From a virus, in IMG/VR virus record IMGVR_UViG_3300011115_000308, positions 1 through 56,450 of that record: DNA of 56,450 nt; one strand, 5' to 3'. Position numbers and translations under genes: made by a program. How positions within the stretch are numbered: position 1 is the stretch's first letter; each line of letters opens with the position of its first letter. The notes beneath the pieces are model-generated. The model saw only the letters and a list, made by a program, of their open reading frames with translations. It ran no database searches and was not told the origin of the DNA. Of the stretch, positions 2,721 to 33,644 are shown piece after piece.

Positions 2721-3142
2721 CCAAGACTTGAACTTAATGGCGTTGACCCTTGGGTGGTGCTAAACTTGTAAACGTTGGAGCCAGTTGAGCATACAGACAC
2801 AGCATACTGACTGGGGACATTGACTGCCGTACTACCACTGGTCGCGTTCTTAATGGTAATGGTAAATGCGCCGGAGGTAATGTTCCCGATCAACCACTGC
2901 CCGCCAACACCGCTTGGTATCTGGTAGATCAGGTTGGCCGAAAGGGTGCCCGTGAACAAAATGGCAAAGTTTTGGTAGTCAATAATAAGCAGCGTCTGCG
3001 TGGTGGTGATGCCCGTAACGTCGATTTCTAGGGAACTTCCAAAGGCTGTGTCGATGACAGAAAAGTTCGCATTCAGAGGGATGTCCCAACTGATCGTGCC
3101 TGCGGCAGGTTCGAACAAGCCCTTGTTCGTGGTGGTGACCAT
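1898..3142 (-). CDS. Kelch-like repeat tail fibre/adhesin, 414 aa
   Basis: Third paralogue, with the same N-terminal attachment module (~140 residues) and six VFGGG units. The later units are shorter or diverged (GGNLSTRMDYI, GGLNGFEYI), consistent with unit deletion and drift. The start ATG overlaps the stop of the upstream 683-aa virion protein by one base (TGATG), and its AGGAG site lies inside that gene, so translation is probably coupled. This places the fibres at the distal end of the structural operon. Receptor binding is inferred from family and context. Confidence 0.75.
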   Translation of the reverse strand: MVTTTNKGLFEPAAGTISWDIPLNANFSVIDTAFGSSLEIDVTGITTTQTLLIIDYQNFAILFTGTLSANLIYQIPSGVGGQWLIGNITSGAFTITIKNATSGSTAVNVPSQYAVSVCSTGSNVYKFSTTQGSTPLSSSLGVFGGGYSATYSTLIQYIIISTTVTFASTFGNLTVARGYAAGVSSSTRGVFGGGTTGSVSAVMDYITFTTTGNATTFGNLTVARKELGGLSSSTRGVFGGGYTTARSSVMDYITIATTGNAASFGSLTTSRDGVAGVSSSTRGVFGGGNLSTRMDYITIATTGNATTFGNLTLGRSGVGGVSNGTRGVFGGGSSSGLVMDYITIATTGSATTFGNLLTSGSRAGASSSTRGVFGGLNGFEYITIESIGDATDFGNQVETFSLQYMAGLSSFSPS

Positions 3143-5193: not shown

Positions 5194-5194
5194 T

Positions 5195-8100
5195 TCAAAT
5201 ACCCCTTGCAAGACGAGCGGCGGCTTCCGCTCGGTCTCGTTCGTAAAACTTCCAGAACAGTTGCCGTTGTTCATTTGTTACACTTGGGGCATCGTATTGC
5301 GTAATGGTTACTGTTGGCGGCGGGTCACCCATAAAGTGCGGAACTTCGGCGTTAGCTTTTGACAAAAGTTCCTGATAACGCTGATTGCGGTTACTAGAGA
5401 ACTCATCCTGGTATGCCTTAATGTCGGTTTCTTGGTTTGGGTGGTCTTTAGCCCACTCATCAAACCCATTGTAGTATTCCATTAGGTATGCGTTATTTGC
5501 CTTCATCTTAACCATTATATCTCGCATAGCGGCTGGAGGCATATCGGGGGATGGCGTGAAAGAACCCGCAAACTCAATAGATGTTGCAGGCGCTCCACCT
5601 GGTAGAGCTTCTAGATTACTCTTTTGTAGCAAGGCGCTTTCTTTATCAGCAGAAACATAAGCATCTGGGTTTGACATAAACGTTGGCAAGTTGTTTGTAT
5701 CTATTCCTAGTGCTTGCGCCCATGCCCCCATGATAGCGCCGGACCTAGCTTCTGGGCCTGGCTTCATTCCCAGCATAACTTGAGACATATTATCAAGCGT
5801 GTTGTTCATGGAATTTGTAGCCGCTTGAGAATTGATAGAATCGTTTTTAAATTTCTCACGTTGACCTTGCATCATTTCTGTAGATGCAACTTGGTTTTGC
5901 GCGTTGATAGCTGCTGGAACCTCAACCTTGTTTCCGTTTACATCAGTTGTTGAGCCACTTTCCATGATTTGATCACGAGCCTTAATTGCTTGCTGAACAA
6001 CTTGAGACATTGGGTTTTCTGGATCAGATTGAGCGCCAACATTTTTGTTGATCAAATCGTTAAGAGACTGCAAGTCCTGCATAAACGGTATCTGATAATC
6101 CACGCCTTTTATGTTGCGCGTTACAACACTTCTCGTGTCGGCCACGGTGATAGGCTTAATCGGCGGCTGACCCATCAGGGTTGGCACTCCACGCAGTGCA
6201 GTCAGGTCAATGCCTTGCTGTGCGGCATACTCCGGCCACGACATGTCTGTCATGCCATTGTAGACTGCATACGAGTAGTTTTTCATCGCGTTCTGGGCGT
6301 TTGCAAGGTTCGTAGCCTCAACATCCGCAGTCTGCTTCAGAAGACCCTTATAGGTGTCACTGCCAACGGCGGCACCTTGCAGAAGTGCTGTTAGGGGTGA
6401 CATGCTATCGGAAGAAACCATTCCACCTATGCCTGACAGCAAGGACATAATGGCATTCCGGTCAAGTTTCCCAGTGTCTTTCTCATGGAAGAACTTCCCG
6501 ATTAAGTTGCGATCTTCGTATGGCTTATTGATATGCAGCGGATCGTTACCTTGCTGTGACATGTCTGCGCGGGCCAAGCCGTCACTGGGTGGCATACGCG
6601 CGTCACCAAGACCACCAGTTTTACCCTCAGACGCAGCCCAAGGCTGCATTCCCCGCGTATCATACAAGTGCTTGGCAATGCTTTCTTGAAGATCAGCCGT
6701 CATTTTCTCATCGCCAGTAAGACCCATTGCATTCTTGGCATCTGCTAAAGTTCCGCCAACTATTTGATATAATCCCATGGGGGTAGCAACTCGACCGTCT
6801 TCTGTTTGGGTTTTGCTGTAGTTTGCATATGGGCCGCCTACACGAGCAAATTCAATTGCCTGATCAACCGTCATGTCAGTAATATTTGTGCCCGCAAAAG
6901 CACCGCCTTCACGATTGGCAAAGCCCAAAAGCGCATTCGGATCATTTCCGCTTTCGCGGGGAATAATCTTGGCCTTCGCCGCATCCCAGTCTGTAGGGAT
7001 ATGAACAGGCTTAACGCCACCTAATCCATCAGATGGCGCTGGTTCAACTTGGATAGTCCGCATCGTATCGGCAGCAACATCAGCGGCACCTAATCCTTCA
7101 GGACGGGGCGGTGGCGGGCGCATTGATGTGGTCGGCTCAGCAACATCAGCAGCACCCAATCCTTCAGGGCGGGGCGGAGGTGGGCGCATTGATGTGATCG
7201 GCGCGGCATCCGAAGTGGGGGCAACGCCTGTCGTGGGAGACGGGGGGTAGGGGTGAGCTTGATATGGCACACCAAAACTCTTTCCCGCGCCGAAACCCAT
7301 ATTGGCGGGATTTGTAGAATGCTGCATAAGACGATCTGTTAAAATGTCTTGATACCCTGAATTAGGGAAGCCTCGCTCTTTAAGGCCTTTGCGTAACTCA
7401 ATGGTATTTCTGTTTTCCCCTTGGTATTTTTGATTGGCAATAAAGGCAGGTGATTGTTCATAACCTTCAACTAACAGATGTTTAGGACCATATGGCGCTT
7501 GGTGGCCAGCAAGACCCATGTTGGCGGGGTTAGTTCGAGAACTCATCAGATAATCTTTGTTAAGATCGTCAATGATCTCCGTTCCAGCCGCAAACTGCTT
7601 CCGAAGCTCTTGCTCACGGCGGAGTTCTTCTGTTGTCAGCGCAGGGTAAGAAACCCCACCATCCAGCGCATACCCATGGCGATCATCAACAGCACCACCG
7701 CCTGCCTTGCCACCAAACATGGCTGCAATCTTGAGGGCGTCAGAAATAAAGTTGCCGCCCTTCTTTTGCGCTTGCTCGGCTTCTTCACCCGTCAGAAGAG
7801 GGCTGGCCGAGAAAATCCGCTCTGGGATGTAACTTTCCTCATACAGGGGCAATTGGCTCATGGTCATGGGGCCAGCAATGCCACCGCCCTTTGCATACCC
7901 ATTGACCCGCCCGCCCGTCTTGACCGGATTTCCAAAGATGTTGGTCGGGCGCGTTGTAGCGGTCGTGGAGCCGTAAAGCGGGCCAATCGTTGCATATTGG
8001 TTGGCCAAGAACTGAGCCGTCTGGAAGTCATAACCTTGCTCTTGCATGAACCGATTGATCATGGCGTCAACGCCAGCCTGTTGGTTTTGCTGTTGCACAG

Positions 8101-9523
8101 CGCCAGCGTTCATCTGAGCGCCAGCAGCCTCAAGATCAAGCCTCTGCTGTTCCGTGCCAAACCCTGCAAGTTGCTTACCAGCGCCCATCACATTGGTGCC
8201 GATGTTGCTCATGGTGTTGCCAAGGTTGCCCTGCTGTTCACCGATGTTGGCCTGTGCAGTTCCCATCTGGCCAATTTGTGTACCAAGCGTTCCTTTTGCC
8301 GATCCAACGGCAGTTTGTTGAGCGCCCAAGTTCCCCATGACCGTGCCAAGGCCACCTTGCTGTTCGCCAAGGGTTCCAAGTTGAGCGCCCATGTTCCCAA
8401 TTGCCGTGCCGATCTGGGCACGTTGGGTGCCAAGTGTGCCCTGTTGAGCGCCAAGGTTACCCATGGCCGTGCCAAGTTCACCTTGCTGTGCGCCAAGGGT
8501 TCCCATGGTTGCACCAAGCTGACCACGAGTAGCACCAAGCTGCCCAAACTGAGCGCCTGCATCTAACATACGTTGAAGGTTTGCCTGACGTGCTGCGAGA
8601 TCAGCAGTCTGCTGTCCTTGCGCCGTGGTGGTTGCAAACTGGTATCCTTGGTTGCCGATGTTGGCCATGCTGTTGGCCATCGCCAACTGGTTCTGTTGAT
8701 TTAGGTTGGCCGCAGCGATGCCCGCGCGATCCCCCCCAAATGCTCCAGAAGAAATTGCTGTACCGAGCGCCTGAGACTGCGCTTGATTGTTTGCTTGGTT
8801 CATCAATGCGGCAGTGCTGTCGCGTACTTCCGACAAGTACGGAGACAGGTATTTTTGAATGTCCAGAGAGCCGAGGTTGGCCGGACCCATGCCCGCTTGA
8901 GTTGCCTCGGTCCCTTGGCTAACCGACTCCATGCCCTGATTGGCGGCATTCATGCCCTGACCAACGTAAGCAGTTCCCTGACCAACTGTGCCCATACCTT
9001 GGTTGATATAGTCTGAGCCAGTGTTGATATTGGACAGGCCGCTTCCCGCCACCCCCATCCCTTGATTGACGGCACCAGCCCCTTGACCAATATACTGGGT
9101 GCCCTGACCAACTGTGCCCATACCTTGGTTGATATAGTCTGAGCCAGCGTTCATGTTGGATAGGCCGCTGCCCGCAACGCCAAGGCCTTGACCGATGGTG
9201 TTCATGCCAGCGCCCATGGAGTTGAGGCCGCCAGCAGCGACCCCCATGCCAGTGTTCATATACCCCAAGCCAGCGTTGGTGGCGTTTACGCCCGCCTGCA
9301 TGTAAGGCTTGTACCCGCCAATCGTAGCGTTGACGCCAGCCATGCCCGCCCTTTGCTGCTCCGTTAAAGGGGCAACGTAGTCTGAAGCTTGTGTTCCATA
9401 AGATACAAACGGCTTTGCCGCAGCCTTTTTTGTGGCGTCGGCAGTTGCATTATAGAAGTCTTGAACCTGCTGTGGGGCCTGAGTCGTTACCGTTGTGGTT
9501 TTTTTCTTCTTCTTGAAGCACAT
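5195..9523 (-). CDS. Giant repeat-rich virion protein with lytic transglycosylase-like domain, 1442 aa
   Basis: The N-terminus is polybasic (MCFKKKKK). Residues ~85-215 are Gly/Asn-rich with a 42-residue tandem duplication built on GSDYINQGMGTVGQGT. Residues ~325-450 are a heptad-like array of LGxQxGx/MGxxxGx. TGGRV lies near 537-540 and an 18-residue Pro-rich segment is repeated at ~778-817. Residues ~845-970 look like an SLT-type muramidase: IIPRESGND with candidate catalytic Glu857, then ATPMGLYQIVGGT. The C-terminal ~450 residues are helical. A virion protein with a murein-cutting domain fits an internal ejection protein that locally opens the cell wall during DNA entry, functionally like T7 gp16. 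That role is inference. Confidence 0.7.
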   Translation of the reverse strand: MCFKKKKKTTTVTTQAPQQVQDFYNATADATKKAAAKPFVSYGTQASDYVAPLTEQQRAGMAGVNATIGGYKPYMQAGVNATNAGLGYMNTGMGVAAGGLNSMGAGMNTIGQGLGVAGSGLSNMNAGSDYINQGMGTVGQGTQYIGQGAGAVNQGMGVAGSGLSNINTGSDYINQGMGTVGQGTAYVGQGMNAANQGMESVSQGTEATQAGMGPANLGSLDIQKYLSPYLSEVRDSTAALMNQANNQAQSQALGTAISSGAFGGDRAGIAAANLNQQNQLAMANSMANIGNQGYQFATTTAQGQQTADLAARQANLQRMLDAGAQFGQLGATRGQLGATMGTLGAQQGELGTAMGNLGAQQGTLGTQRAQIGTAIGNMGAQLGTLGEQQGGLGTVMGNLGAQQTAVGSAKGTLGTQIGQMGTAQANIGEQQGNLGNTMSNIGTNVMGAGKQLAGFGTEQQRLDLEAAGAQMNAGAVQQQNQQAGVDAMINRFMQEQGYDFQTAQFLANQYATIGPLYGSTTATTRPTNIFGNPVKTGGRVNGYAKGGGIAGPMTMSQLPLYEESYIPERIFSASPLLTGEEAEQAQKKGGNFISDALKIAAMFGGKAGGGAVDDRHGYALDGGVSYPALTTEELRREQELRKQFAAGTEIIDDLNKDYLMSSRTNPANMGLAGHQAPYGPKHLLVEGYEQSPAFIANQKYQGENRNTIELRKGLKERGFPNSGYQDILTDRLMQHSTNPANMGFGAGKSFGVPYQAHPYPPSPTTGVAPTSDAAPITSMRPPPPRPEGLGAADVAEPTTSMRPPPPRPEGLGAADVAADTMRTIQVEPAPSDGLGGVKPVHIPTDWDAAKAKIIPRESGNDPNALLGFANREGGAFAGTNITDMTVDQAIEFARVGGPYANYSKTQTEDGRVATPMGLYQIVGGTLADAKNAMGLTGDEKMTADLQESIAKHLYDTRGMQPWAASEGKTGGLGDARMPPSDGLARADMSQQGNDPLHINKPYEDRNLIGKFFHEKDTGKLDRNAIMSLLSGIGGMVSSDSMSPLTALLQGAAVGSDTYKGLLKQTADVEATNLANAQNAMKNYSYAVYNGMTDMSWPEYAAQQGIDLTALRGVPTLMGQPPIKPITVADTRSVVTRNIKGVDYQIPFMQDLQSLNDLINKNVGAQSDPENPMSQVVQQAIKARDQIMESGSTTDVNGNKVEVPAAINAQNQVASTEMMQGQREKFKNDSINSQAATNSMNNTLDNMSQVMLGMKPGPEARSGAIMGAWAQALGIDTNNLPTFMSNPDAYVSADKESALLQKSNLEALPGGAPATSIEFAGSFTPSPDMPPAAMRDIMVKMKANNAYLMEYYNGFDEWAKDHPNQETDIKAYQDEFSSNRNQRYQELLSKANAEVPHFMGDPPPTVTITQYDAPSVTNEQRQLFWKFYERDRAEAAARLARGI
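8189..8548 (-). repeat. Heptad-type repeat array (LGxQxGx)
   Basis: Residues ~325-445 of the 1442-aa protein repeat a 7-residue pattern such as LGAQQGT, MGNLGAQ and LGTQRAQ about 17 times. It probably forms a Gly/Ala-rich helix or coiled coil. Confidence 0.7.
8879..9226 (-). repeat. ~126-bp tandem duplication coding Gly/Asn-rich repeats
   Basis: Within the 1442-aa gene, two copies of a 42-codon unit (containing SGLSN, GSDYINQGMGTVGQGT and GQG) follow each other with few changes, embedded in shorter 7-residue repeats. Confidence 0.7.
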
Positions 9524-20317: not shown

Positions 20318-21229
20318 TTACGAAGGTGTCGAACCGAAGACCGAACGCCAGTTATAGTAGGCGAACGAATAACGCTCATAACCCTTTACAAGCAGGTTAT
20401 CTGTAACAAAATCCACTTGCATATCCGTTTCAAACTTAACCCGTTCCATATAAGACAAACCATCAATGTTTGTCAAGAGGAACCAAGCGGATGCAGAGGT
20501 GAAGAAGTCGTTGACCATGTAGCCCTCTGGCAGACCGCCAGCGGTGGACATGATCGCGTTGACATCGTTGTCAGCCGTGCCTGGGCGCAGTTCCGTCTTC
20601 AGCAGGCGGATGGCTACGGGTTCCAGAGCGGCAGGAACGATCAGCTTACGGCCACGGGCGAAGACCTTCAGGCCAGCCTGATCGCGGAACTGGGTACGAA
20701 TAGCGATCATGCCGTTCAGCAGGGTCGATTCGTTCAGTTCCACTTGGATCGTGGGAGTGTTGGCAACCACACCGCCGTCAATGGGGTGGCTCAACGACAG
20801 CAGTGCCACACCGTCACCACCGATGGACGAGTTGTAGGTCGTCGCGGTGTTGAAGATGTTTGCCGCGTAGATTTCCTTGGTCTGGTTGAAGCTTTCAATC
20901 AGGCCGAGGTTTGACGGCTGGAACTGTGTTTTGTACAAGTTGTCGTCAATGGCCTTGCGGGTGATAGCGTACCCCAGACCGATTTCGACGTGTTCTTGGT
21001 TGTAGATGTAACGTTCGCCAGCGCCGTTATCGAAGGAGGTTTGGCCACCCTCGGTCTTCAGTTGTGCGAAGCCCAAGAAGCGCATCTCAGCGGTGCGTTC
21101 CAGCGCCATCTTCGAATTGTGCTTGGTGAACATCTTGTCGTACTGAGATGGGATCATCTCGTACTTGCCCTCAATCCCACGGAGGCCGGGGAGCAGAAGG
21201 TCTTTAATCGCAGAAAGATTAACAGCCAT
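20318..21229 (-). CDS. Major capsid protein, 303 aa
   Basis: The protein has the features of HK97-fold capsid subunits of the Mu gpT-like kind: an N-terminal MFTKHNSKMALERTAEM region, a middle GLGYAITRKAIDDNLY helix with a TKEIYAANIFN stretch, a P-domain-like LSLSHPIDGG and RKLIVPAALEPVAIRLL, and a C-terminal LTNIDGLSYMERVKFETDM...LLVKGYERYSFAYYNWRSVFGS. The last block is typical of the family. AAGGAG lies 9 bases before the start. It is followed at once by a UUCG hairpin terminator, as expected for a gene needing abundant mRNA. The 304-aa scaffold-like gene lies upstream in the same transcription direction. Confidence 0.85.
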   Translation of the reverse strand: MAVNLSAIKDLLLPGLRGIEGKYEMIPSQYDKMFTKHNSKMALERTAEMRFLGFAQLKTEGGQTSFDNGAGERYIYNQEHVEIGLGYAITRKAIDDNLYKTQFQPSNLGLIESFNQTKEIYAANIFNTATTYNSSIGGDGVALLSLSHPIDGGVVANTPTIQVELNESTLLNGMIAIRTQFRDQAGLKVFARGRKLIVPAALEPVAIRLLKTELRPGTADNDVNAIMSTAGGLPEGYMVNDFFTSASAWFLLTNIDGLSYMERVKFETDMQVDFVTDNLLVKGYERYSFAYYNWRSVFGSTPS

Positions 21230-22596: not shown

Positions 22597-23106
22597 TCGG
22601 GGATCGGGATCGCCTCGTACTTCTTGCTGATCTTGACCAGTGGGTCGCCCTTGTTGGTGCGCTCAAACTCGCCATTTCTGGACGGCTGAGACAACTGAGC
22701 TTCCTTGTCACGCATCTGCATACGCGCCTTGCGAAGTTCCGCGTTGCGGGCATCTTGGGTGATTTCCAGCGGACGCTCCATCAGCACCATGCCCTTGCGG
22801 GTGATTTCCCCGCCCTTGTATCCCATTGGCATCAGTTCGGGGTGACGTGACGCGGGAACGCTTTCCCAGCCCTTACGGGCCAGCGCCACTTGGTGGGCGG
22901 GGTCTTCAGCGCCGAGGATCGTGCGGGTTTTCCATTCGTAGGACCATCCGTCTGGGATTATGCCCAGTTCAATGTAATATTCGTCGGTGCCAGTGTCGTT
23001 TAGATCAGCGGCGTGTCTATTTAGTTCCGCTGTCCGGCGGTCGGCGCGTTCGCGCGGGCTTTCCTCTGCGGGGGGGGGCGGGGCGCATTTCGGGGCGAAG
23101 TGTCAT
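22593..23106 (-). CDS. Conserved phage protein split by a C9 homopolymer (frameshift needed), ~170 aa
   Basis: The only good start is the ATG at 23106 (MTLRPEMRPAP). Its frame ends in an unrelated tail unless one C is dropped from the nine-base C run (23070-23078, minus strand). It then joins the long frame EESPRERADRRTAELN...IPDGWSYEWKTRTILG...ASRHPELMPMGYKGGEITRKGMVLMERPLEIT. That frame has no ATG or TTG of its own; the first usable codon is a GTG at 22889 in mid-protein. Proteins of this design (IPDGW-YEWK, ASRHPE-MP) occur near phage capsid genes. The cause is either a homopolymer error, a real mutation or ribosomal slippage. The gene overlaps the scaffold-like gene by 86 bases. Confidence 0.65.
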
Positions 23107-23935
23107 TGAATTTTCCCTTCCTTTTTGAGGGCCACTTGTTCTTGGCATAATCCTCTGGTTTCATTCCCATCATCTCTGCCATTTCTCGTTCGGCGGCAGA
23201 AAGACGTACCACGTTGGAGCTTCTAGACTGATCCCCGCGATTAGAAGGCGCAGCCGCTGGTGCCGCATCTCGCCTTTGTACCACCTTTGCTGCGTACTGA
23301 TCATTGGTGTCGCTTTGAACGTTGCGCGACCCAATTTTCAGTGTGTCCTCAATTGCCGAGAAGTAATCATCGCTGTCAGTGGGGATACCATCTGCAACCG
23401 CAAGGTTGTGGGCGGCAAGCATTTTGGCATTCAGGCGCGCATCACGCACAAATTCAGGGTGACGGCGCACCCAGTCTGCACTGCGCGGCGACAATTGCGA
23501 TGCAAACGCCTCCACGGGGTCAGCCGGAGGTAGTTGCGGCTCCGGTTCGCGCGGTGCGCTTTCCATTGCCTGCCGACCGTTGTTTAACTGAAGCAATTTG
23601 GCTTCGTGGGACGACATTTCCCGTTGAATCTTGGTCGCGCGGTCAAAATCACCATTCTGCAAGGCGTAAGTGTGCGCTTGGCTAAGGAGTTCAATGTCCC
23701 GATTGACCGTGTCGATGGCATTTACCACCAGTTGGAAGTTTGTCTCGTCCACTTCGTTGCGTGAGCGGTGAACAACAACGGCAGCCTCATGCACTTGGCG
23801 TTCGGCGTGTATTCTTGCCGACCGTTCCGCGTCCAGTTGTCGCTTGAGGTCGGTAATATACGCGGGTTCGTCATCTTGAGACGCTTCCGTTTCCTCTACG
23901 GGCAGTACAAGAGTGATGTCTTCTTCGTTTTCCAT
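23021..23935 (-). CDS. Scaffold-like capsid assembly protein, 304 aa
   Basis: The protein is acidic at the N-terminus (MENEEDITLVLPVEE), has a long central coiled coil (ITDLKRQLDAERSARIHAERQVHEAA, RATKIQREMSSHEAKLLQLN) and a strongly basic C-terminus (NKWPSKRKGKF...PPPQRKARANAP). Acidic, helical proteins with a basic C-terminus encoded just before the capsid gene are typical phage scaffolding proteins. In these the C-terminus binds the inner capsid. The C9 run at 23070-23078 also falls in this gene, so its last ~25 residues depend on the true length of that run. Confidence 0.65.
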   Translation of the reverse strand: MENEEDITLVLPVEETEASQDDEPAYITDLKRQLDAERSARIHAERQVHEAAVVVHRSRNEVDETNFQLVVNAIDTVNRDIELLSQAHTYALQNGDFDRATKIQREMSSHEAKLLQLNNGRQAMESAPREPEPQLPPADPVEAFASQLSPRSADWVRRHPEFVRDARLNAKMLAAHNLAVADGIPTDSDDYFSAIEDTLKIGSRNVQSDTNDQYAAKVVQRRDAAPAAAPSNRGDQSRSSNVVRLSAAEREMAEMMGMKPEDYAKNKWPSKRKGKFNDTSPRNAPRPPPQRKARANAPTAGQRN

Positions 23936-23946: not shown

Positions 23947-24336
23947 TCAGTACACGGAATCGGGGTCTTGGACCCGACCCTTGATGTAAATGTCGTCAAA
24001 GATACGGCACAGGACGTTATTCACGGTGATTGACCACCCTTCGGACGGGCGAAAGATCAGCCAATCATGTTCTTTGAACTCCATGCTTTCAAACCATGTG
24101 CCGTCTTGTTCAAACGCCTTGGGGCCGCGCTTGACCAGAAGACCTACCTTTGATTGGTACTTGTCTTCGTCAACGTGGCTATCCGTCAGGATCAAGCCGC
24201 TTTTTGTTTTAGTTGGGCGTAAATAAGTGGCTAAAAGCACTTGATTGTGGAACAGTTCTATATTAGAAATGTCTCCAAGTGCATCTAGGATGGTTTGTTT
24301 TGGGTCTTGTTCGTGCAACATGGGCATATGCGGCAT
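23947..24336 (-). CDS. GroES/Cpn10-like co-chaperonin, 129 aa
   Basis: Start chosen at 24336 (MPHMPMLHEQD) with AAGGA 6 bases upstream. The core NQVLLATYLRPTKTKSGLILTDSHVDEDKYQSKVGLLVKRGP has the strand-loop-strand pattern of Cpn10, with KSGLILTDS in the place of the GroES mobile loop (typically K-T/S-G-G-I-h-h-T/P), followed by VNNVLCRIFDDIYIKGRV. T4 gp31 and other phage GroES analogues help the host GroEL fold the capsid protein. Location beside scaffold and capsid genes supports the same role here. Confidence 0.65.
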   Translation of the reverse strand: MPHMPMLHEQDPKQTILDALGDISNIELFHNQVLLATYLRPTKTKSGLILTDSHVDEDKYQSKVGLLVKRGPKAFEQDGTWFESMEFKEHDWLIFRPSEGWSITVNNVLCRIFDDIYIKGRVQDPDSVY

Positions 24337-24346
24337 GGTTAATCCT

Positions 24347-24553
24347 TCAGAGGGTTTTGTTGACGACTGTCTGTGCATCGTCGCACAGTTCGATGACCAT
24401 ATCCAACGCGGCGATCCTACCGACCGCCTCGCGGTATTGTTCTATGGTCGTGATTGAATGCCCCCCAACAATGTTGGTGGCAATGTGATGTCGTTCTTCG
24501 CTTATCAGCCTACGAAGCTCGCGTTCGAAAACGCTGCTTGCCGTCTGGATCAT
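24347..24553 (-). CDS. Small helical protein, 68 aa
   Basis: Helical throughout (VFERELRRLISEERHHIATNIV, IEQYREAVGRIAALDMVIELCDDAQTVV). I list the ATG at 24553; a GTG at 24562 is equally possible because neither has a strong ribosome site. It lies 10 bases before the GroES-like gene start in transcription order. The layout resembles small phage proteins that accompany head genes, but I recognise no family. Confidence 0.55.
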   Translation of the reverse strand: MIQTASSVFERELRRLISEERHHIATNIVGGHSITTIEQYREAVGRIAALDMVIELCDDAQTVVNKTL

Positions 24554-24633: not shown

Positions 24634-26859
24634 TTATGCGTTCTTACCATACTTATCAACTTTTTCAAGGCGGCCCTTACCGGAGCCAGCCCCAAACTGC
24701 ATTTTGGGGTAAACCTTACCACCAGACTTCCGTCCCATCATAGGCTCAGGGCCTCCTGCGGGGGGCAGGCCAGCGGCACCAGCCATTGCGTCACCAAGGC
24801 CAGGGGGAACGCCACCACCCATTGGAGGGGGCGGAGGTGCCATTGGGGGCGGACCACCAACGGGTGGCATCATCGGCGGCATTTGCGATTCAATGCCGTT
24901 CTCTGGCTTGTTGGCATTATGCGGCATGACGTTGATGCTGATGTTTGTGGTGCCCTTGGTACGGCCACCAGTTGCACGGCCCATGCGGCCACCGCCACTC
25001 TTGTAGCCAGCCGAACCGCCGCAAGCTTTGCACATGCAGCCCTTCTCATGCGCCTCTTCAACCTTGCCCCCTGCCTTAAAACCGCCAGCCTTTTTAGCAT
25101 TGCTGGCAGCTAGGGCTTGCCCCGTAAACCCTGGTTTAGACGTAGGGGTTCCCATAGGCTGTGCCTGTTGGGGCATACCCATGGGGCGCGCTTGTTGGGG
25201 CATACCCTTATTGTACATCACGCCCGGGATCATTGGAGCGCCGCCCGTCATGTCTGTTTTGCCGCCCATTGGGCCTTGGCCGCCAAACATACCTTTTCGA
25301 CCACCACCTTGAGGACCACCCATTGGCATTGGTTGACCGCCAAACATGCCTCGTTGGCCACCGCCCATTGGGGCGTCCATTGGACCTTGACCGCCAGACA
25401 TACCTTGTTGGACACGTTGTTGGGCACGTTGTTGGGCTTGTTGGATACGTTGTAAATCCGGCATCTGCTGACCGCCACCCATGCCTTGTTGCGGTAGACC
25501 CATGCCTTGTTGGGCACGTTGGTCTTGTTGGGCTAGTTGCCGCGCCATATCTTGCTGCATTTGTTGTAAAAATTGCGGTGACGGTTGTTGGCCGCCACTC
25601 ATTTGATTTGTGTTCGTCTGCGTTTGCATAGGCATCTGCTGACCGCCACCCATTTGCGGTTGTGCATAAAGGCCGCGTATTGTGTCCATCGGCATTTGCC
25701 CAAATGCACCACCACCTGCCTTGCCGATGCGGCCACCCTTGTTCAGGTTCTTCATCGACTGTTGCTTGTCGTGCTTGTCGTCAGCCTTGGAAGCTTCCCA
25801 CTCGGCCATCGTCATCTTGCGCTTGTCAGCAAGCTTCTTGTCTTGCATCTGGTCCTTGGCGGAACCCTCAAACTTCTCAGCCTTGCCACCTTTTTTGTAG
25901 CCGCTGTAGTTACTATTCCCAGTTGAGCTATCGCGGTCAAGCCAACTACCTGCGCCATTTGGGGCAGGATGATGACCCATGCGCGGGGCTTTTGGAATAG
26001 GTGCAGGACCAACCCGACCTTTTAGGCGCTTGTCCCCAGCAGCGGCGGCTGCATCTAAAGCCGCACTTGCTTTTTCTTTAGCAATCATGTCCAAAATGCG
26101 GCCCTGATCTGCGGTTTGTATTAGATTGTGGATAGCCTTGTGCTTGGCAAAGTCCTTGGCAGCAATTTTATCCTGTGTTGCACTTTTAGCGTTATTAAGC
26201 TGTTTTTGGTCAAACCCACGCGCATTTGCGGAACGCTTCATCTGAAAAACGTTCATGTTTCCCTCAATGCCGTCGGTCGTTACCCCACCTTTTTTCAAGC
26301 CAGCGGGACGCTTTGGCGGGCGCATTTGGAAGTCAGCTTCAGACGGAACGCCGTCTTGCTCAGAATCGCCAACGCCTTCATAAATTTCAAGAGAAGACGG
26401 GCGCTTCTTGGGGCGCATTGATTTTTTTTCTGCATCCTCTTCGGCAGCCAAATCGGGGAACATCTTGCGCCACTTGGCGTGATCTTCTTCCTTCATTGCC
26501 ATTTGGCCGCTGTCAGCACCACCGCCACCAGCCTTCTTGACCATGCCGCCCTTTTTGAAGCCACCAACGTGCTTGACGCCATCGCGCTCTTCGTTGGCAG
26601 TCTTTTGGTCGGTGTTGGCCAGACCAATCTTGCCGCCATTCATGCGCGGGGTGCGGGATAGGTTGCTCTTGGCCGTTACGCCTTCAACCGTACCGCCAGC
26701 CTTAAACGCGCGGCGGGAGATCGGGCGCATACCCGTCTTGGCATCTGCGTTTAGCTTTTCTGCGGGAGTGAAAGTGGAGCTGTCCACTTTGCCCCCAGAG
26801 CTTTCAATCATGCTCTGGGCCTTCTTGTTTTTTGCTGCGCGCAGCGCCTTGAAATCCAT
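24634..26859 (-). CDS. Low-complexity GG-motif virion protein, 741 aa
   Basis: Built mostly from flexible segments with repeated basic GG motifs ([41 protein letters not shown]). A Gln/Met/Gly-rich middle (residues ~395-570, for example [18 protein letters not shown]) is followed by CMCKACGG, a possible small zinc site, and a Pro-rich stretch. The C-terminus ([23 protein letters not shown]) matches an ending I associate with several phage GG proteins. Position between portal-linked genes and capsid genes suggests an internal head protein. No enzyme domain is visible. Confidence 0.6.
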
Positions 26860-26876
26860 GGTGTGATCCTCTGAGG

Positions 26877-29225
26877 TTATCCGGCGTCCCGGTCGTGACC
26901 AAGAGCATACAACGAAGTGAGGGATAATGCACGTTCGATGTTTCCGGCCCTGCCGCCACGCTTGTGGCCAATTTTCCCGATGTTCTGTTCGGCTAAAGCT
27001 GTACTGTCAAGCATACCTTGGTTAATTTGGCCCCATGGCTTTTGCTCCTCATACATTTTGCGATCAGTAGAACGGCCTAGTGGCTCTTCGCTCAATGAGT
27101 GAACTGGCAAGTTTCCCTTGATCTCTTTTCCAGTCAGGGCAGTTGCGTAATCTGAGAAAGCCGCGCGCCGTGGGATTAGCGGAACATCACCATAGTATTC
27201 GCCCTTGGTATCCGCTTGATAAGTGGAGTGCTTGCCCAAAGCGCCAGACAAGGCCCCCTTCATCAACTGATCAGGGTCCAGCGTCACAAGGCGGTGACCA
27301 ACCATGGCGTTGTTAGCATCAAGCAATTCAGGCTCAGTAATCGCGGCTCTTGTTACCCCAACTTGAGGGAACCCACGAACCCGCCATTTGGCAGTATCCA
27401 TCATTCTGGTAAAGCCAGCACGATGCGTTCCGGCAAAACCTGTTTCTGGGCGCATGAAATCAGAAGCAGCCTTGGAGTTCATAATGCCAGGCCAGTTTTC
27501 CATAGCCTTGGCAAATGCAGCACGTTTCCCTTTGGTTGGGGCATGTTCCCCGCGCTTCAATGCTTCGTCAAATGCCTGCGCGTCTTTGGGATCAATGTTT
27601 GCCGATTTGATTTGGGCCAGAAGCGCATCAACCATGTTGTGGGACGACGAAACAGATTGCGGACCCATAGGTTGAAATGCCCCAACCAGTGGTCCCTTTT
27701 CAGCAGCTTTGCCAATCATCTTGGCAAGGCTTTTGGCATGGGCCGGAGCGTTTGCCCATATCCTGCCTTGGTTTGGCTCAAGCATGTAGTCAGCACCAGC
27801 GTGGAGGTCCACTGGCCATTCAAGCTTCTTGTTTTGAATGTGCGTCAGGCGTCCAAGCCTAGAACGATCACCACCAAGTCCTATCAGGGTGCCGCCAGCC
27901 ATAGGGGTGAGGGCATCTTCCCAACTCATTTTCTTCCGTGGCACCGTGGTAACGCCAGGGATTGGCGAAATAGCAGACTGAACATCTCGCGGCGCAACGT
28001 CCTGATTGATTTTGTAATACCCCCCACGAACTGGCTTGTTGGTTGATACATCAACTTTATTGGAGTTCAGGATGGCAATCTGACGTGCGCGTTCCATCGG
28101 GTCGTTGATCTTCCAAATTTCACTGGGATCAACAATCCGCGTTTTGCGGCTTTCCATTGCCTGAAGGTACTTTTGGGCCTGCTCATCGCTGAACTTTGCG
28201 TCAACGCCAATGACCTTCAAAAGCTGTGCGCCAAGCGGGTGGTTCTTTAAGTTTTCAATGACTTTCCCAAAGTTTTCGTCACCACCTAGCTTCCCCCCAA
28301 ACTGCTTTCCAATCCGACCGCCATCTTTGGCGTTCCGCATGGCATCAATCACGTCACTGTGGGTTGTTTTTTCGTTTCCGGCCTTGTCCCATATGGCATG
28401 GTGGGTCAAATGCTGGCGAAATGGCTCCAAAGCGGGGTCCATCTTGGGGTTTAACGCAGTTTGGCGGGCCGCAAGGCGATCAACGGCCTCAAAACCAGCG
28501 CGCCGCATTGGTGACTTGGCTGCCGATGTCGGCATACCCGTTTGCAGCACCACTTGGCGCGCATCCAGCGTCGGCTGATCGCCACGGCCAACCATTGATG
28601 CGACAAATCCAGCCTTAGCAGTGCCAATACCGCGCAAATTCTTGCCAAAAGCACGCCATTCCGCAACTGGGCTATCATCTGACACGGCACGTTTCACCAT
28701 ATCCGACACGGTCTTGTGCTTGTCGTGCAAATTTAAAGCCGCCCACGGCAAGGCATCGGCTTCGGCCTGTAATCCAAATGGTTTCATTACCTTTTGGGCG
28801 TGATCTACGGCTTCCTGATCAACTTTTCCAACTTCGGCGGAGTCCAAATACCGCTGTCCCATTGGGGATTTCAACCATTCGGCCATTGCGCCTTCGGGCC
28901 GAATGCTTCCAGTGACACTTGGGGGCAAGTAAAGACCTGACGCGCGAAGCTTATCTGCGGTCTGGGAGCGCCGCTGAATGCTAGATCGCGTAATGGCGTA
29001 AGCTTTAATCAGGTCGCGCGGCTCAAGCCCCTTGGTGGCAGCCTTGCGCGCCATGTCATCCATGTAAGCGCCAAAGTCTTCAACGTGGCTTGGTATTTCT
29101 TTCAGCCCTTCAAGGTCTTCTCTGACATCTTTTAACGGACGCCAATTAAAGCCCTGCATCTTCTTGCTGGAGGGGTCTTGGTACTGCGACACCAGATCAA
29201 GTGCGCGCTTTACAGTATCCGCCAT
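26877..29225 (-). CDS. Large polyvalent-type virion protein, 782 aa
   Basis: Helix-rich protein without a domain I can name. It starts with [13 protein letters not shown], and ends with a [22 protein letters not shown] tag similar to the C-terminus of the 648-aa neighbour. GG-basic motifs recur inside ([15 protein letters not shown]). The segment [32 protein letters not shown]...[11 protein letters not shown] belongs to a set of large phage proteins that sit next to ParB/ADP-ribosyltransferase-like polyvalent proteins. These are thought to be carried in the capsid and injected. Only 1 base separates it from that neighbour. The function is unknown. Confidence 0.6.
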
Positions 29226-29226
29226 A

Positions 29227-31173
29227 TCACTTCCCCTTGGATTTCAACGCCACCGTAGCACCTTTGCCGTCCTTGGTGAAGCGGCGTGTTAGGGCAAGGG
29301 CGTTGTCAACCGAACCACCTTTGCGTTTAACCAGACGCGGCTTGCCGGAAATGTGCTGGTATTTGTCAGGATTGCCCAGCAAAAGTTCAACTGGGTACGG
29401 TCTTGTGTAGGCGGGCTGACCAACTGGTTCCATGTCAACTACAGGGTAATGATCCTGATAGACAAGCTTTGGCGGTTCCTTGCTGCCCCAACCGCTGACG
29501 TGCAACATGCGGTGGCCGACCACTTCCATCGGCGTGGAATTTGGCGTTGGCAAATAGCGATATTTGTCTCCAAACGGCAGGGCGTCAAATACGCCATCGG
29601 CCTTGGCAGCCATATAAGCTTGACGGGACGCTTCGTGGCGGTCGGACATTTTGGTGAGCGTGTCTTGGACATGCTGTGGCGGCGCGTCCGACATTGCTGC
29701 ATTCATTGTACGACGAAAGCCTAGATTGACCACGTTGTCGCCCACTTCGCCACCTTCTTGTTTGCTAACCATGCCACCATACTCGTACTTGTCCGTTACC
29801 TGCACGGGGTCGTGGTGGAACATGACGTAGTTGTGCGTGGGGTCGCCGTCAGTGTCGTTGCGCGATCCAGCATCAAGGTAGCGGATGCCCTTTAGACCTT
29901 GGGACTGAAGATAATCAGAAGCTTGCTTGCCGTTTTCGCCATAATTAGAAAGAGCTTGATGAAGATCACGACCAGTAGCTTCCACGCCAACGTCACGACC
30001 TTCACGCCACGCTTGCAAGACGCCACGGGTGGGGCCAATAGCTTTGTTGATGTCAGCTTCTCTGGCGATGCGCTGAATGTTTGGATGTTGCTCCGATAGC
30101 GGCTTGTCCCAGTCCAGCAGTTCTTCGGGTTTAACGTTCAGCTTAACTTTGTACATGTGGCCGCCTGGGCGGAAATCACCGCTGGAAAACTTTTTGGATA
30201 CCGCCTCAACTAATTCTGGCGTCATATTTGGGCTTGTGTGGGTTGCGCCGTTCTTAAACTTACTGAGCCACTTGACAGCACCTTCCGGCGTATTGTCGCT
30301 GAATACCAGTGCCATTTGACCTGCGCGCTTCTCCAAATCAGGGGTGCCTTCTGGATGAATAAGCGTGTCAGACAACGAATTTCGGTAGCCTTTTGCCACC
30401 GCCTCATTCCCAGCAAAATACAGCCCATGCCCATAGGATTGGTTGCCCTCGCCCGTGCCAAGCTTGCTGATGTCAAACTGGTCAAAATCATGCGGGCTGC
30501 CGTGGTAGGCGGTGATGCCATCCTCGTCATCATTGTCAACCGTACCACCACCAGCCTTGGTGATGTCGGGGTCGCTGGATGCCATAGCCGAAACTTTGTC
30601 TGGATGCATGGGGCCATCGGCTTCTTCTGCACCATTCCAATAGCGAACTTCCGCCTTCACGCTTGGAACGCCCATTGCGTGGGCAACAGCCACCCGTGTG
30701 TTGCCCTCAAGGATGAAAGGCTTGCCGCGATGGTTTACCGCCACCACAACCTTATTGCCCTTCTGGTGGGGATCAAAACCCTCTTTGCTGACCGACGACA
30801 TCAGATCGTCAAACCGTGGCTCGCCCGCAACCCTTTTTTCATTGTTAAGCGGTTCAATGGATTTCAAGACGTGGGTCGGCAGGAACAGGTCTGATTTTCC
30901 ACCCATCCACCCCGTTATCGCCCCAGCAATCCCCTTCATTCGGGGGTACTCAAATGCGTGACTTTGCTTGCTTTCAAGCCAATCCCCGCCAGGGTTGTCC
31001 TTTACAAAATCAACCTTGCCACCATCAGCATGGACCTGACGGGGGACGTTGGGCAGGTATTTGGACGGGGCGATCTGGCCACCAGCGCGGTTCACAGCAG
31101 TGCGGGCGCGGGCTTTGTCAAGCATACCAGCCGCTGTCAGCTTGGCTGACCGGATCGCCTTGTCCTTGTCCAT
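29227..31173 (-). CDS. Polyvalent protein: ParB-like + ADP-ribosyltransferase-like domains, 648 aa
   Basis: I start at the ATG at 31173, which overlaps the portal stop by one base (TGATG). Residues ~95-178 look like a ParB/sulfiredoxin-type domain, with LEGNTRVAVAHAMG matching the G-N-x-R-h-x-A core. Residues ~220-465 match the ART-PolyVal type: YHGSPHDFDQFD (His224), then GEGNQSYGHGLYFAGNEAVAKGYR and later GIRYLDAGSR...YVMFHHD. GG motifs (DGGKVDF, AGGGTV, YGGMV) separate the modules, and the C-terminus is KGGSVDNALALTRRFTKDG. Polyvalent proteins are proposed to be injected with the genome and to modify host targets. Encoding right after the portal fits packaging into the virion. Confidence 0.75.
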   Translation of the reverse strand: MDKDKAIRSAKLTAAGMLDKARARTAVNRAGGQIAPSKYLPNVPRQVHADGGKVDFVKDNPGGDWLESKQSHAFEYPRMKGIAGAITGWMGGKSDLFLPTHVLKSIEPLNNEKRVAGEPRFDDLMSSVSKEGFDPHQKGNKVVVAVNHRGKPFILEGNTRVAVAHAMGVPSVKAEVRYWNGAEEADGPMHPDKVSAMASSDPDITKAGGGTVDNDDEDGITAYHGSPHDFDQFDISKLGTGEGNQSYGHGLYFAGNEAVAKGYRNSLSDTLIHPEGTPDLEKRAGQMALVFSDNTPEGAVKWLSKFKNGATHTSPNMTPELVEAVSKKFSSGDFRPGGHMYKVKLNVKPEELLDWDKPLSEQHPNIQRIAREADINKAIGPTRGVLQAWREGRDVGVEATGRDLHQALSNYGENGKQASDYLQSQGLKGIRYLDAGSRNDTDGDPTHNYVMFHHDPVQVTDKYEYGGMVSKQEGGEVGDNVVNLGFRRTMNAAMSDAPPQHVQDTLTKMSDRHEASRQAYMAAKADGVFDALPFGDKYRYLPTPNSTPMEVVGHRMLHVSGWGSKEPPKLVYQDHYPVVDMEPVGQPAYTRPYPVELLLGNPDKYQHISGKPRLVKRKGGSVDNALALTRRFTKDGKGATVALKSKGK

Positions 31174-33644
31174 CACTTCTTACCTTTTGGCATACGCGCA
31201 ATTGCTTGTTGGCTTTGAACCTGCATGGCAAGCTTGATCGAATCTTGAACCTGCTGACGCCGCGACAGGTCATCCTCGTGGCGCATCCGCGTCCGGTCTG
31301 CCATTTCCTGACGGTCCAAACGCATTTGCTCCAACGCCATGTCGTGCTGCATACGCGCTTGGTCGTCCATTTGTTCGCGCTGCATCTGGGCTTGCTCAAG
31401 CGCCATCTCGTGCTGCATCCGCGCCTGATCGTTCATGTCTTCGCGTTGCAGGCGCATCTGTTCCATTTGCATGTCAGCATCACGCGCCAGATCGCGGTTC
31501 TGATCGTTCATCTGATCGCGCTGGGCAGAGATTTCCATCTGCTTGGCTTTGTTCTGCTCTGCCATCATTTTGATTTGGAGTTCCTGCGGGTTCGGCCCAG
31601 AAACCCCAGTCGCAGGTGCCGCCGCAGGCTGTTGTGCTTTGATCATGGCGGCCTGTCCGCGCATGGTGTCAGCGTCAGCTTTCTGCTTGTTGATTTGCAA
31701 TTCTGCCTTGGCTTGCTCTTCTGCCGGATCAGGCTGGTTCATTTGATCGTCGGGCAGCATGAACTGCTCAGGGTTGGACCAGCCAATGGCGCGCAGGGCT
31801 GCCTTATCAACGGCAACCGTGTCGTACATTTGCGGGTTTGCAGCCACAAGTTGTTTCAGGGCCATGATCTTCATAATGCGCTGGCTGTGCGAAGACGTGT
31901 TGGGATCGGCCTGTGGGACCAGTTCCACATCGGTCAGGGCCTGCAAGAACAACTGCTCGTTCCATGCAATGGTGGGCTTGCGGTTACGCTCCCAAAAGCT
32001 TTCGGGATGCTCACGGAAGCACTGCACCAACAGCGTAAACTCTTCGGCCTGCGAACTGTGCATCCGTTTGTGAACCGCGTTCAGCACCTTGGTGGCCTGT
32101 TCAATCATGGCCAGCGTGGTGCCAACGGGGGCGTCAGAACGGCCTTCGCCCACCTGCAACTCCGAAGTGCCCCCCACGCGCATTCCCGTCTCGCTCATGT
32201 CTTGCACTAGCGACATCAGCGCGCCGGACGGCTCCTTGTAGGGCAACGGCATGATCGCATCGCTGATCTTCTGGCCCCCAGTCTTGACCTGTGCGCCGCC
32301 CCCTGGCGGGACGCGGAAGATGTTGGTGTTCTGGCGCGCGCCGACATCGCTGATCAGGAACCCAGGGAAGTTGGCGTACATGCCAGCGTCCAGCAACTCG
32401 CGCCACGCGGCAGTAATCGCATTGGTGGTGTTGCCAAGGATGTGCAGCAAGCCAATGTCGTAGAAACCAAGCCCAGGCACAAACGTGTATTTGACGAACG
32501 TGGTGCGCGCTTCGGGCAGCATCCCCGCGTCCGGCTGGTCGTAATTGCGGGTGATGGACAAGATTTCACGCGACGACACGTCAATGGTCACGCGGTACGG
32601 GATTTCCAGTCCAGTGATCTTGCCCTTGAACTTGTGTTCAAACTTCTTGATGTCCAATTCGCAATAGATTTCGTAAATCTCGCGGTCACGGTCATCGGGG
32701 TTGGCGGACGTGGTGGTGACGCCCTGCTGTGACGCCTTGGCCTCGGCGGCAGCGTCCGGCGTAACCTGCATTGGCGTGGACAAGTCAATGTCGCGGTACA
32801 CCCCAAGGATTTGCAGGCGCTTGACCGTGGACGGCTTGAGCATCACGCGGTGCGTAATCCGCATAGCCGTGGACAGGTCAGTCGCGCTGTTGTTGACAAT
32901 CAAGTTGTCGGCATCCACGCTGTCGCTGGCAGGGCGGTTGCGGAGCGGGCAGAAGAACACTTTTTTGAACGACGTGCCGCCAAAGCCCAACAGCAGCAAC
33001 ATCCTATCGGTGTCGGGGTAGTATTCGCGGGCCGTGCTGGTCAGGAAGTGGTTCATGTCCTTCTCAAACGCATTGGCAATGTTGTCGCGCTCAATGGTTG
33101 TACCATTGGCATCGTCCCTGATCTTGACGGGGCCATCGGTGGGCAGCAACTCTGACCTTGCATTGGCCTGAAACCGCAACACGGCCTCCTGCAAGAGCGG
33201 GTGCCGAACCTTGGACATGCCCTCAATCGGTGCGCCATCGCCCGTGCCCTGCAACCCTGGCACTTCAATCTTGAGGCCCAAAAGCTTAATGCCCTGCGCG
33301 CGGTCGTCGATCCACTCGCTGCGGCTTTCGAGGTCGTCAGAAACACCACGCAGGAGGTCTTCCGCGATCCGCGCCAATTCGGTTTTTTCAATCTTGTCAG
33401 ACAGGTTGTCAAACCACCCTTCGGGCTGGCCCTCAACGTCTTCGGCATCCTCAATGGGCTTGCCGTCCAGTGACAACGTGATGGACCCATCGCCGTGGTC
33501 GATCTTTAGAATCGCGCCGTTCTCGTCCATCTCTGGGATGTCAACCTGATCGTCGCCGTCCTGTTCAATCGTTACATCCATGTCCCCCATTTCGTCGGGC
33601 TGGCTGTCGCCAAGGATGCGGATGTTGGGGTTCAAGCCAGACAT
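31173..33644 (-). CDS. Portal protein, 823 aa
   Basis: Long podovirus-type portal. The N-terminal ~60 residues are acidic, then the portal core follows: LARIAEDLLRGVSDDLESRSEWIDDR, MSKVRHPLLQEAVLRFQANARSELL, FGGTSFKKVFFCPLRNRP, RREL-type turns and GNTTNAITAAWRELLDAGMYANFPGFL with PPGGGAQVKTGGQKI. The last ~150 residues are a Gln/Met-rich coiled coil with ~23-residue repeats (DQARMQHEMALEQAQMQRE), likely the barrel or tunnel lining inside the capsid. The dodecamer forms the DNA entry vertex and docks terminase. It lies downstream of terminase with the usual spacing of small genes. Confidence 0.85.
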   Translation of the reverse strand: MSGLNPNIRILGDSQPDEMGDMDVTIEQDGDDQVDIPEMDENGAILKIDHGDGSITLSLDGKPIEDAEDVEGQPEGWFDNLSDKIEKTELARIAEDLLRGVSDDLESRSEWIDDRAQGIKLLGLKIEVPGLQGTGDGAPIEGMSKVRHPLLQEAVLRFQANARSELLPTDGPVKIRDDANGTTIERDNIANAFEKDMNHFLTSTAREYYPDTDRMLLLLGFGGTSFKKVFFCPLRNRPASDSVDADNLIVNNSATDLSTAMRITHRVMLKPSTVKRLQILGVYRDIDLSTPMQVTPDAAAEAKASQQGVTTTSANPDDRDREIYEIYCELDIKKFEHKFKGKITGLEIPYRVTIDVSSREILSITRNYDQPDAGMLPEARTTFVKYTFVPGLGFYDIGLLHILGNTTNAITAAWRELLDAGMYANFPGFLISDVGARQNTNIFRVPPGGGAQVKTGGQKISDAIMPLPYKEPSGALMSLVQDMSETGMRVGGTSELQVGEGRSDAPVGTTLAMIEQATKVLNAVHKRMHSSQAEEFTLLVQCFREHPESFWERNRKPTIAWNEQLFLQALTDVELVPQADPNTSSHSQRIMKIMALKQLVAANPQMYDTVAVDKAALRAIGWSNPEQFMLPDDQMNQPDPAEEQAKAELQINKQKADADTMRGQAAMIKAQQPAAAPATGVSGPNPQELQIKMMAEQNKAKQMEISAQRDQMNDQNRDLARDADMQMEQMRLQREDMNDQARMQHEMALEQAQMQREQMDDQARMQHDMALEQMRLDRQEMADRTRMRHEDDLSRRQQVQDSIKLAMQVQSQQAIARMPKGKK

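What the first reader, a model, noticed from the sequence alone, without database searches (positions are those of the whole stretch)
24634..31173. Trio of giant GG-motif virion proteins, one fusing ParB-like and ADP-ribosyltransferase-like domains
Directly after the portal come three very large genes (648, 782 and 741 aa), each separated by 18 bases or fewer. The first has a ParB-type LEGNTRVAVAHAMG core and an ART-PolyVal-like core (YHGSPHDFDQFD, GHGLYFAGNEAVA). The others are partly low-complexity proteins with the same GG-basic motifs. Polyvalent proteins are known as candidate injected effectors, but a tightly linked trio beside the portal, with one shared sequence tag, looks like an undescribed cargo set delivered with the genome. 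The catalytic residues and the host target are unknown.
Basis: partly seen in the sequence, partly recalled or inferred. Interest (0 to 1): 0.8.

Follow-up and report, generated by a model that had tools for sequence, protein, structure and literature searches.

The report
Tagged, shuffled phage cargo proteins
Next to its portal gene this uncultivated phage carries a cargo locus whose proteins are built from swappable enzyme-like domains joined at glycine-glycine linkers and ending in a shared short helix, which looks like an undescribed address tag for loading proteins that are injected into the host with the DNA.

Summary
The trio is real: minus strand, directly after the portal, genes overlapping or 1-17 bases apart. 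The 649-aa protein has a ParB/sulfiredoxin fold (model), an ART-PolyVal domain (H225/Y253/D456) and an SH3-like domain. Only the 741-aa protein is low-complexity. Comparison with about 150 related loci changes the picture. The interval portal to slot 3 is a cargo bay. Family slot-1 proteins run from 649 to 1921 aa and are strings of shuffled cassettes (ART, GNAT, M15 peptidase, ParB, others; InPase in slot 2), with homology breakpoints at GG (49% within 5 residues; 12% expected). Cargo ends carry a short helix tag, V-D-K/R-A-L-x-L-T, with a frozen pattern on unseen loci giving 30/52 versus 2/260 other ORFs. Its alanine codons are randomised, so selection is on the peptide. The tag also ends a gene beside the SLT-type internal virion protein. 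Best reading: polyvalent proteins loaded by a new, T4-CTS-like terminal tag and ejected with DNA. Virion location and tag function are inferred. New variant of a known kind.

The parts
31173..33644 (-). portal protein, left border of the cargo bay
   Evidence: Pfam SU10_portal E=7.6e-11, phrog_1216 portal E=7.2e-21
29227..31176 (-). slot 1: 649-aa cargo protein, N-tag / ParB-Srx / ART-PolyVal / SH3-like / C-tag
31099..31167 (-). slot 1 N-terminal helix (aa 4-26), constant N-tag DKAIRSAKLTAAGMLDKARARTAV; followed by disordered GG linkers (RAGGQIAPSKYLPNVPR, HADGGKV)
   Evidence: helix with disorder after it in the AF2 model; N-tag shared by slot-1 relatives with different interiors
30625..30915 (-). 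ParB/sulfiredoxin-fold domain (aa 88-184), E157-G-N-x-R161 invariant
   Evidence: VIA-align top rows SerK/ParB/Noc/Srx, Z up to 7.8, 76-91 residues; 16/16 rows conserve E157, G158, N159, R161
29779..30519 (-). ART-PolyVal domain (aa 220-466), candidate triad H225, Y253, D456
29347..29724 (-). cassette 4 (aa 485-610), helices plus SH3/CarD-RID/Tudor-like barrel at 532-609
   Evidence: pLDDT about 90, VIA Z up to 5.9 over 60 residues, weak; recurs in 13 cargo proteins
29275..29310 (-). slot 1 C-terminal tag VDNALALTRRFT (aa 623-634) behind the KRKGGS linker
   Evidence: helix 623-633 in model; statistics
26877..29225 (-). slot 2: 782-aa cargo protein
29187..29222 (-). slot 2 N-terminal helix [12 protein letters not shown] (aa 2-13)
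   Evidence: predicted helix 2-13 at low pLDDT; N-end tags in other cargo
28383..29096 (-). slot 2 HhH-GPD DNA-glycosylase-like domain (aa 44-281)
   Evidence: the 18 highest VIA rows are all DNA glycosylases or relatives, Z up to 6.6 over 102-167 residues
28563..28637 (-). HhH motif to candidate catalytic Asp: L197-R-G-I-G-T-A-K ... L-D221
   Evidence: same 24-residue spacing as EndoIII L114 to D138; invariant in relatives
26976..27998 (-). slot 2 second domain (aa 410-750), fold unassigned; occurs alone in L050, L062, L066
26904..26939 (-). slot 2 C-terminal tag [12 protein letters not shown] behind KRGGRAGN linker
24634..26859 (-). slot 3: 741-aa KGG-rich protein, right border and hallmark gene of the locus
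   Evidence: 39 overlapping GG against 20 expected, 0/2000 shuffles; at least 482 relatives in IMG/VR
26545..26859 (-). slot 3 conserved N-terminal about 105 aa (KVDSSTFTP...[14 protein letters not shown]...[10 protein letters not shown])
23947..24378 (-). GroES-like co-chaperonin
   Evidence: Cpn10 E=3.5e-6
23021..23935 (-). scaffold-like protein
   Evidence: weak similarity to the C-terminal part of protease/scaffold proteins, E=0.003; position
20318..21229 (-). major head protein
   Evidence: phrog_371 E=4.7e-10
5195..9523 (-). 1442-aa ejection-type protein with internal GG linkers (PVKTGGRVNGYAKGGG)
   Evidence: weak phrog_4287 DNA ejection protein E=0.0028; counterpart in MW202675.1 annotated internal virion protein D, SLT E=4.3e-26
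3142..5274 (-). 710-aa protein ending KSGGRVSP...VAHALEVANRSI, i.e. the same linker plus C-tag (tag 3145-3180)
   Evidence: same ending in MW202675.1 next to the SLT protein

Best explanation
The trio is one version of a modular cargo bay between portal and slot 3 of a large uncultivated phage group. Slots 1 and 2 are polyvalent proteins: folded enzyme-like domains (here ParB/Srx, ART, an SH3-like domain and a DNA-glycosylase-like domain) strung together by GG-basic linkers, which are the joints where cassettes have been exchanged [shown]. Short amphipathic helices at the ends (consensus V/I-D-K/R-A-L-x-L/I-T), held on GG linkers, act as an address tag that brings any cassette string into the procapsid or internal core, probably by docking on slot 3, the scaffold, portal or core proteins [inferred]. 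The cargo is then ejected with the genome through the SLT-type internal-protein channel [inferred] and acts on the host at the start of infection: ART modifies host proteins, ParB- and glycosylase-like domains act on nucleic acid or nucleotides [inferred from family knowledge].
For: Cassette anatomy: 187 segments fall into 41 clusters, 20 recurrent, in shuffled orders. Of 267 homology breakpoints 49% lie within 5 aa of GG against 12% at random, no overlap in 1000 simulations. DNA identity between window and L006 falls from about 95% to background at the end of the ParB cassette. Terminal tag: family A 36/51 cargo C-ends against 1/232 other ORFs, family B 27/44 against 2/179; frozen pattern on unseen loci 30/52 against 2/260, Fisher 2e-25; unconstrained position 3 is K/R in 61 of 79; Ala codons GCT32/GCA30/GCG27/GCC24, so the peptide and not DNA is conserved. 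ART proteins outside this locus type mostly lack the tag (6/56). The tag also ends the protein beside the SLT internal virion protein in MW202675.1, and the 710-aa protein of the window. Purifying selection on cassettes, dN/dS 0.12-0.21. Domain repertoire equals that of polyvalent proteins.
Against: No proteomics or cultured relative with slot 3 exists in the collections, so virion presence is inferred from position, repertoire and analogy. The tag pattern was generalised after looking at families A and B; only the set is out of sample, and its loci share ancestry with earlier ones. About 30-40% of cargo C-ends lack the pattern. BLAST ends are drawn slightly towards shared GG motifs. No binding partner for the tag was tested. 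Cultured portal relatives manage without any cargo bay.
Confidence: 0.6

Rival explanations
1. The constant ends and GG linkers are only the scars of recombination: conserved flanks let cassettes be swapped by homologous recombination, and neither ends nor linkers have a role in packaging.
For: Breakpoints cluster at GG; slot-1 proteins share whole N- and C-terminal stretches.
Against: The tag occurs at N- or C-ends of proteins that are otherwise unrelated, in different slots and in the internal-virion gene region; the Ala codons are fully randomised, so DNA homology is not what is kept.
Confidence: 0.2
2. The GG-basic motifs are cleavage sites: the strings are polyproteins cut into single domains by a phage or host protease, before or after injection.
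For: Position-specific consensus around GG with V/I two residues after it (4x; 59 seen against 5.8 expected); self-processing is proposed for other polyvalent proteins (PMC5512222).
Against: No head protease or zincin-type peptidase was recognised in the window; the M15/VanY cassettes of relatives are cell-wall peptidase families; linkers vary and only 16/41 consensus sites fall at breakpoints.
Confidence: 0.15
3. The proteins are head or core building parts (scaffold, vertex, DNA-condensing) rather than effectors; enzyme-like folds are relics.
For: Late-gene position between portal and scaffold; slot 3 is KGG-rich, basic and nearly constant.
Against: Contents of the slot vary from none to several enzyme cassettes among otherwise similar phages, catalytic-type residues are kept under purifying selection. 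May still be true of slot 3.
Confidence: 0.2
4. The proteins are late products that act in the producing cell (superinfection exclusion, host shut-off or lysis) and are not packaged.
For: No virion proteomics is available; ART, GNAT and peptidase domains could act there.
Against: Strict linkage to portal/slot 3 and a tag shared with the internal-virion gene region.
Confidence: 0.1

Closest known systems
Polyvalent proteins of phages and conjugative elements (Iyer et al. 2017, PMC5512222)
   Same: Multidomain proteins joining disparate activities (ART, ParB/Srx, GNAT, InPase), encoded among virion genes, predicted to be injected.
   Different: That paper has no occurrence of 'linker' or 'glycine'; here a conserved terminal tag, GG joints and a fixed portal-slot 3 bay are shown.
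T4 internal proteins and Alt with the capsid targeting sequence (PMC3012670, PMC5694885)
   Same: Diverse anti-host cargo with one conserved targeting sequence; ADP-ribosyltransferase among the cargo.
   Different: T4 CTS is a 10-20 residue N-terminal propeptide removed by the head protease gp21; here the helix sits mostly at the C-end, on a GG linker, with no protease recognised. T4 Alt is R-S-E type, this ART is H-Y-D type.
P1 Dar system, DarB N-terminal packaging signal and DdrB ParB domain (PMC9024508, PMC5512222)
   Same: Large antirestriction proteins packed into the head by a terminal signal; DdrB carries a ParB-like domain.
   Different: P1's signal is the N-terminal 30 residues of one protein; here a family of tags serves many cassette strings.
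Encapsulation peptides of bacterial microcompartments (PMC11157265)
   Same: 15-20 residue amphipathic helix at N- or C-terminus on a flexible linker that loads enzymes into a protein shell.
   Different: Not phage; no homology claimed; analogy only.
MW202675.1 (Caudoviricetes sp. ct7L0027, Manatee Spring)
   Same: Same gene order, 68% identical portal, tagged cargo of 739, 847 and 898 aa, slot 3, GroES.
   Different: Cargo contents differ: GNAT, M15 peptidase and ART in slot 1, an extra protein, InPase in slot 2.

Membership tests
Polyvalent proteins | two or more domains of disparate biochemical activity in one polypeptide | tested here: met
   ParB/Srx + ART + SH3-like in slot 1; relatives combine ART, GNAT, M15; InPase and glycosylase-like domain in slot 2
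Polyvalent proteins | encoded among virion genes of a portal-terminase phage | tested here: met
   between portal and GroES/scaffold/major head protein
Polyvalent proteins | packaged and injected with the DNA | not testable with these tools
   needs virion proteomics or delivery assay
ART-PolyVal / Tox-ART-HYD2 | profile match above curated cutoff | tested here: inconclusive
   window protein 24.9 bits (cutoff 31.2), aa 222-267 only; L008, holding the same cassette, 41.8 bits
ART-PolyVal / Tox-ART-HYD2 | H (strand 1), Y (strand 2), D (strand 5) active site | tested here: inconclusive
   H and Y nearly invariant, D/E at 454-457 in 46/47 rows, but the N-half was not modelled, so geometry is untested
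ParB/sulfiredoxin superfamily | ParB/Srx fold with conserved active-site arginine | tested here: met
   fold rows for this region all ParB/Srx/SerK/Osa-type, Z 6.0-7.8; R161 16/16. Z is middling; no sequence match in PDB
DdrB-like ParB | match to the DdrB-like ParB profile | tested here: inconclusive
   no such Pfam hit up to E=1, but HMMER filters drop weak matches
HhH-GPD DNA glycosylases (slot 2) | HhH-GPD fold with HhH motif and catalytic Asp | tested here: inconclusive
   fold Z up to 6.6 with the best 18 rows all of this superfamily; L197..D221 spacing identical to EndoIII; no Pfam hit, low pLDDT after aa 213
HhH-GPD DNA glycosylases (slot 2) | lyase lysine as in EndoIII K120 (bifunctional members only) | tested here: not met
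   A203 stands at that position; would make it monofunctional-like
T4-type capsid targeting sequence | short N-terminal sequence removed by head protease | tested here: not met
   tag lies at the C-end in 58-71% of cargo; no head protease recognised. Works-like claim unaffected
T4-type capsid targeting sequence | sufficient to load a foreign protein into heads | not testable with these tools
   experiment needed

The most novel reading that the evidence does not exclude
A third, sequence-unrelated kind of phage protein-loading tag, after T4 CTS and P1 DarB, used by hundreds of uncultivated phages to load exchangeable effector strings at either protein end, with GG linkers as a standard joint and slot 3 as receptor: in effect a natural plug-in delivery system.
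Probability: 0.45. Interest if true: 0.85.

Novelty: new variant of a known kind. Interest (0 to 1): 0.68.

Why it matters
If right, it gives a sequence rule (portal, cargo with GG joints and terminal helix, slot 3) for finding injected effectors in metagenomes without homology to known effectors, predicts which proteins enter the host first, and offers a short peptide tag for loading proteins into phage heads. It turns the open question of how polyvalent proteins reach the virion into a direct tagging experiment.

Tried and rejected
Plain GG counting: not above chance in slots 1 and 2. A PSSM trained on family A tails was too narrow for family B (8/44 C-ends above the interior 95% level) and was replaced by a pattern, later frozen and tested out of sample. 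Tag as a property of ART proteins in general: rejected (6/56). Tag as a DNA-level signal: rejected by codon randomisation. PADLOC and NCBIfam gave nothing. PDB sequence search gave no relative of the ParB, ART or slot 2 N-domain (the hits were cytochrome b562 fusions and other chance matches). Alignment A6 used for the slot-1 model misplaced the ART N-half, so aa 199-279 are not modelled. Fold search of slot 2 shows no clear relative for its second domain: YTH-like rows at Z 4.0-4.4 only. Host: slot 3 is found in two MAG contigs only (a betaproteobacterium and a Planctomycetaceae bin), possibly mis-binned phage contigs; host unknown.
Full report
Observation. The window is a 56,450-base IMG/VR virus record with no tRNA. 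The three genes are on the minus strand behind a SU10-type portal (31173-33644), and are followed by a GroES-like gene, a scaffold-like gene and the major head protein.

Domains. Slot 1 (649 aa): AlphaFold2 gives an N-terminal helix 4-26, a disordered GG stretch, a ParB/sulfiredoxin fold at 88-184, the C-half of the ART domain, a compact domain at 485-610, a linker and a C-terminal helix 623-633. Structure comparison of 88-184 lists only ParB, Noc, sulfiredoxin, SerK and Osa-type chains, Z 6.0-7.8; the cassette keeps E157-G-N-x-R161 in 16/16 relatives. ART-PolyVal matches at E=3.8e-5 in the window and above the curated cutoff in L008, which holds the same cassette. H and Y are nearly invariant and a D/E stands at 454-457 in 46/47 rows. 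The domain at 532-609 resembles CarD-RID/Tudor SH3 barrels, weakly (Z 5.9). Slot 2 (782 aa): the N-domain aligns with OGG1, MutY, EndoIII and AlkA chains (Z up to 6.6), and its L197-x-G-I-G ... L-D221 motif has the same 24-residue spacing as EndoIII L114-D138; the lyase lysine is absent. Several relatives add an inorganic pyrophosphatase domain at its C-end (PF18823, E=2.4e-47). Slot 3 (741 aa) is low-complexity, KGG-rich, with a conserved N-terminal 105 aa.

Cassettes and joints. Searches with slot 1 and slot 3 brought in loci L005-L099. In family A the slot-1 protein runs from 649 to 1921 aa, with a usual N-end (DKAIRAAKLTA...RAGGQIAPSKYLPNVPR.VHA.GG) and C-end (GG.V..ALALTRRFTKDG...KGK) and a shuffled interior. 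Fifty-three non-redundant cargo proteins give 187 segments in 41 clusters, 20 of them recurrent. Ends of local homology lie within 5 residues of a GG in 130/267 cases, against 12% for random positions (1000 simulations, maximum 19%). BLAST extension through shared GG may add a little, but the DNA comparison of window and L006 shows the same abrupt loss of identity at the end of the ParB cassette. Recurring cassettes include ART (several per protein), GNAT, M15/VanY peptidases, ParB, a Phage_L5_gp82-like domain, InPase and a phrog_3170 domain. dN/dS of the cassettes is 0.12-0.21 (portal 0.11, slot 3 0.37).

Terminal tag. Reading the ends of all cargo proteins showed a shared short helix next to a GG linker: [48 protein letters not shown] and others. 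The pattern [VILMH]..A[LIM].[LIVM][LIVATS] in the last 40 residues is met by 36/51 family A and 27/44 family B cargo proteins, against 1/232 and 2/179 other ORFs. Because the pattern was drawn with these in view, it was frozen and applied to new loci from a slot-3 search: 30/52 against 2/260, Fisher 2e-25; either end 37/52. Position 3, not constrained by the pattern, is K or R in 61/79 distinct tags. The invariant alanine uses all four codons about equally, so the peptide is under selection. ART proteins of other phages mostly lack the tag (6/56), so it goes with the locus. In the complete genome MW202675.1 the only tagged C-end among the genes examined outside the bay belongs to the gene next to the SLT-bearing internal virion protein, and the same gene of the window (710 aa) is tagged too.

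Locus. Portal relatives in Caulobacter phage RW, Pelagibacter phage HTVC027P, phage DSL-LC04, Planktothrix phage Pag-Yong1 and Alcaligenes phage vB_Af_QDWS535 have portal, small or no ORFs, GroES and then head genes, with no bay. Slot 3 is present in one public phage record, two MAG contigs and at least 482 IMG/VR stretches. The bay is thus an addition typical of a large, so far uncultivated group.

Mechanism. Shown: modular strings, GG joints, terminal peptide tag under selection, fixed position. Inferred: the tag loads cargo into the procapsid or core, slot 3 or scaffold being the likeliest receptor; ejection with the DNA; action on host proteins and nucleic acids. Precedents are the T4 capsid targeting sequence with its diverse internal proteins (PMC3012670), the N-terminal 30 residues of P1 DarB (PMC9024508) and, outside phages, encapsulation peptides (PMC11157265). 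The domain repertoire is that of polyvalent proteins (PMC5512222); that paper does not mention linkers or glycine. No paper found in the searches made here describes this tag or locus, but most subscription journals are not in the library.

Verdict. The packaging role is a testable inference, not a result.

Noticed in passing
window 26877-29225: HhH-GPD glycosylase-like N-domain in a cargo protein; one low row in the fold list is a phage HhH-type enzyme that decorates hypermodified DNA (8z2n, Z 3.0), so a role in base modification or its removal is possible.
   Followed up: partly
window 29347-29724: SH3-like domain with CarD RNA-polymerase-interacting domains among its best, weak matches (4l5g, 8hvr, 4xax, 7kim); could be a host RNA polymerase binder.
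   Followed up: no
L054 and L056 (contig IMGVR_UViG_3300010965_000005, 90,582 bases): Both loci come from one contig in opposite orientations with identical ORF layout, which suggests an inverted-duplicate assembly rather than two loci.
   Followed up: no
MW202675.1 (L002): Annotations such as 'type I restriction enzyme' (slot 2), 'yenB' (slot 3) and 'endopeptidase clp' (scaffold) are not supported by the domains seen here; likely misannotations.
   Followed up: partly
L206, L214, L223, L271 cargo C-ends: A second ParB/Srx-like motif (GRHRAxAAKxLGIKxxPV) stands directly before the C-tag in many family B cargo proteins.
   Followed up: no
family B loci, first gene after portal (e.g. L205:5683-7041): A recurrent 240-530 aa protein ending KALEIIHHLLTR, possibly a constant core part that uses the same tag.
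   Followed up: partly
window 37834-38484: Serine-threonine phosphatase-like (NinI) gene beside the terminase large subunit.
   Followed up: no
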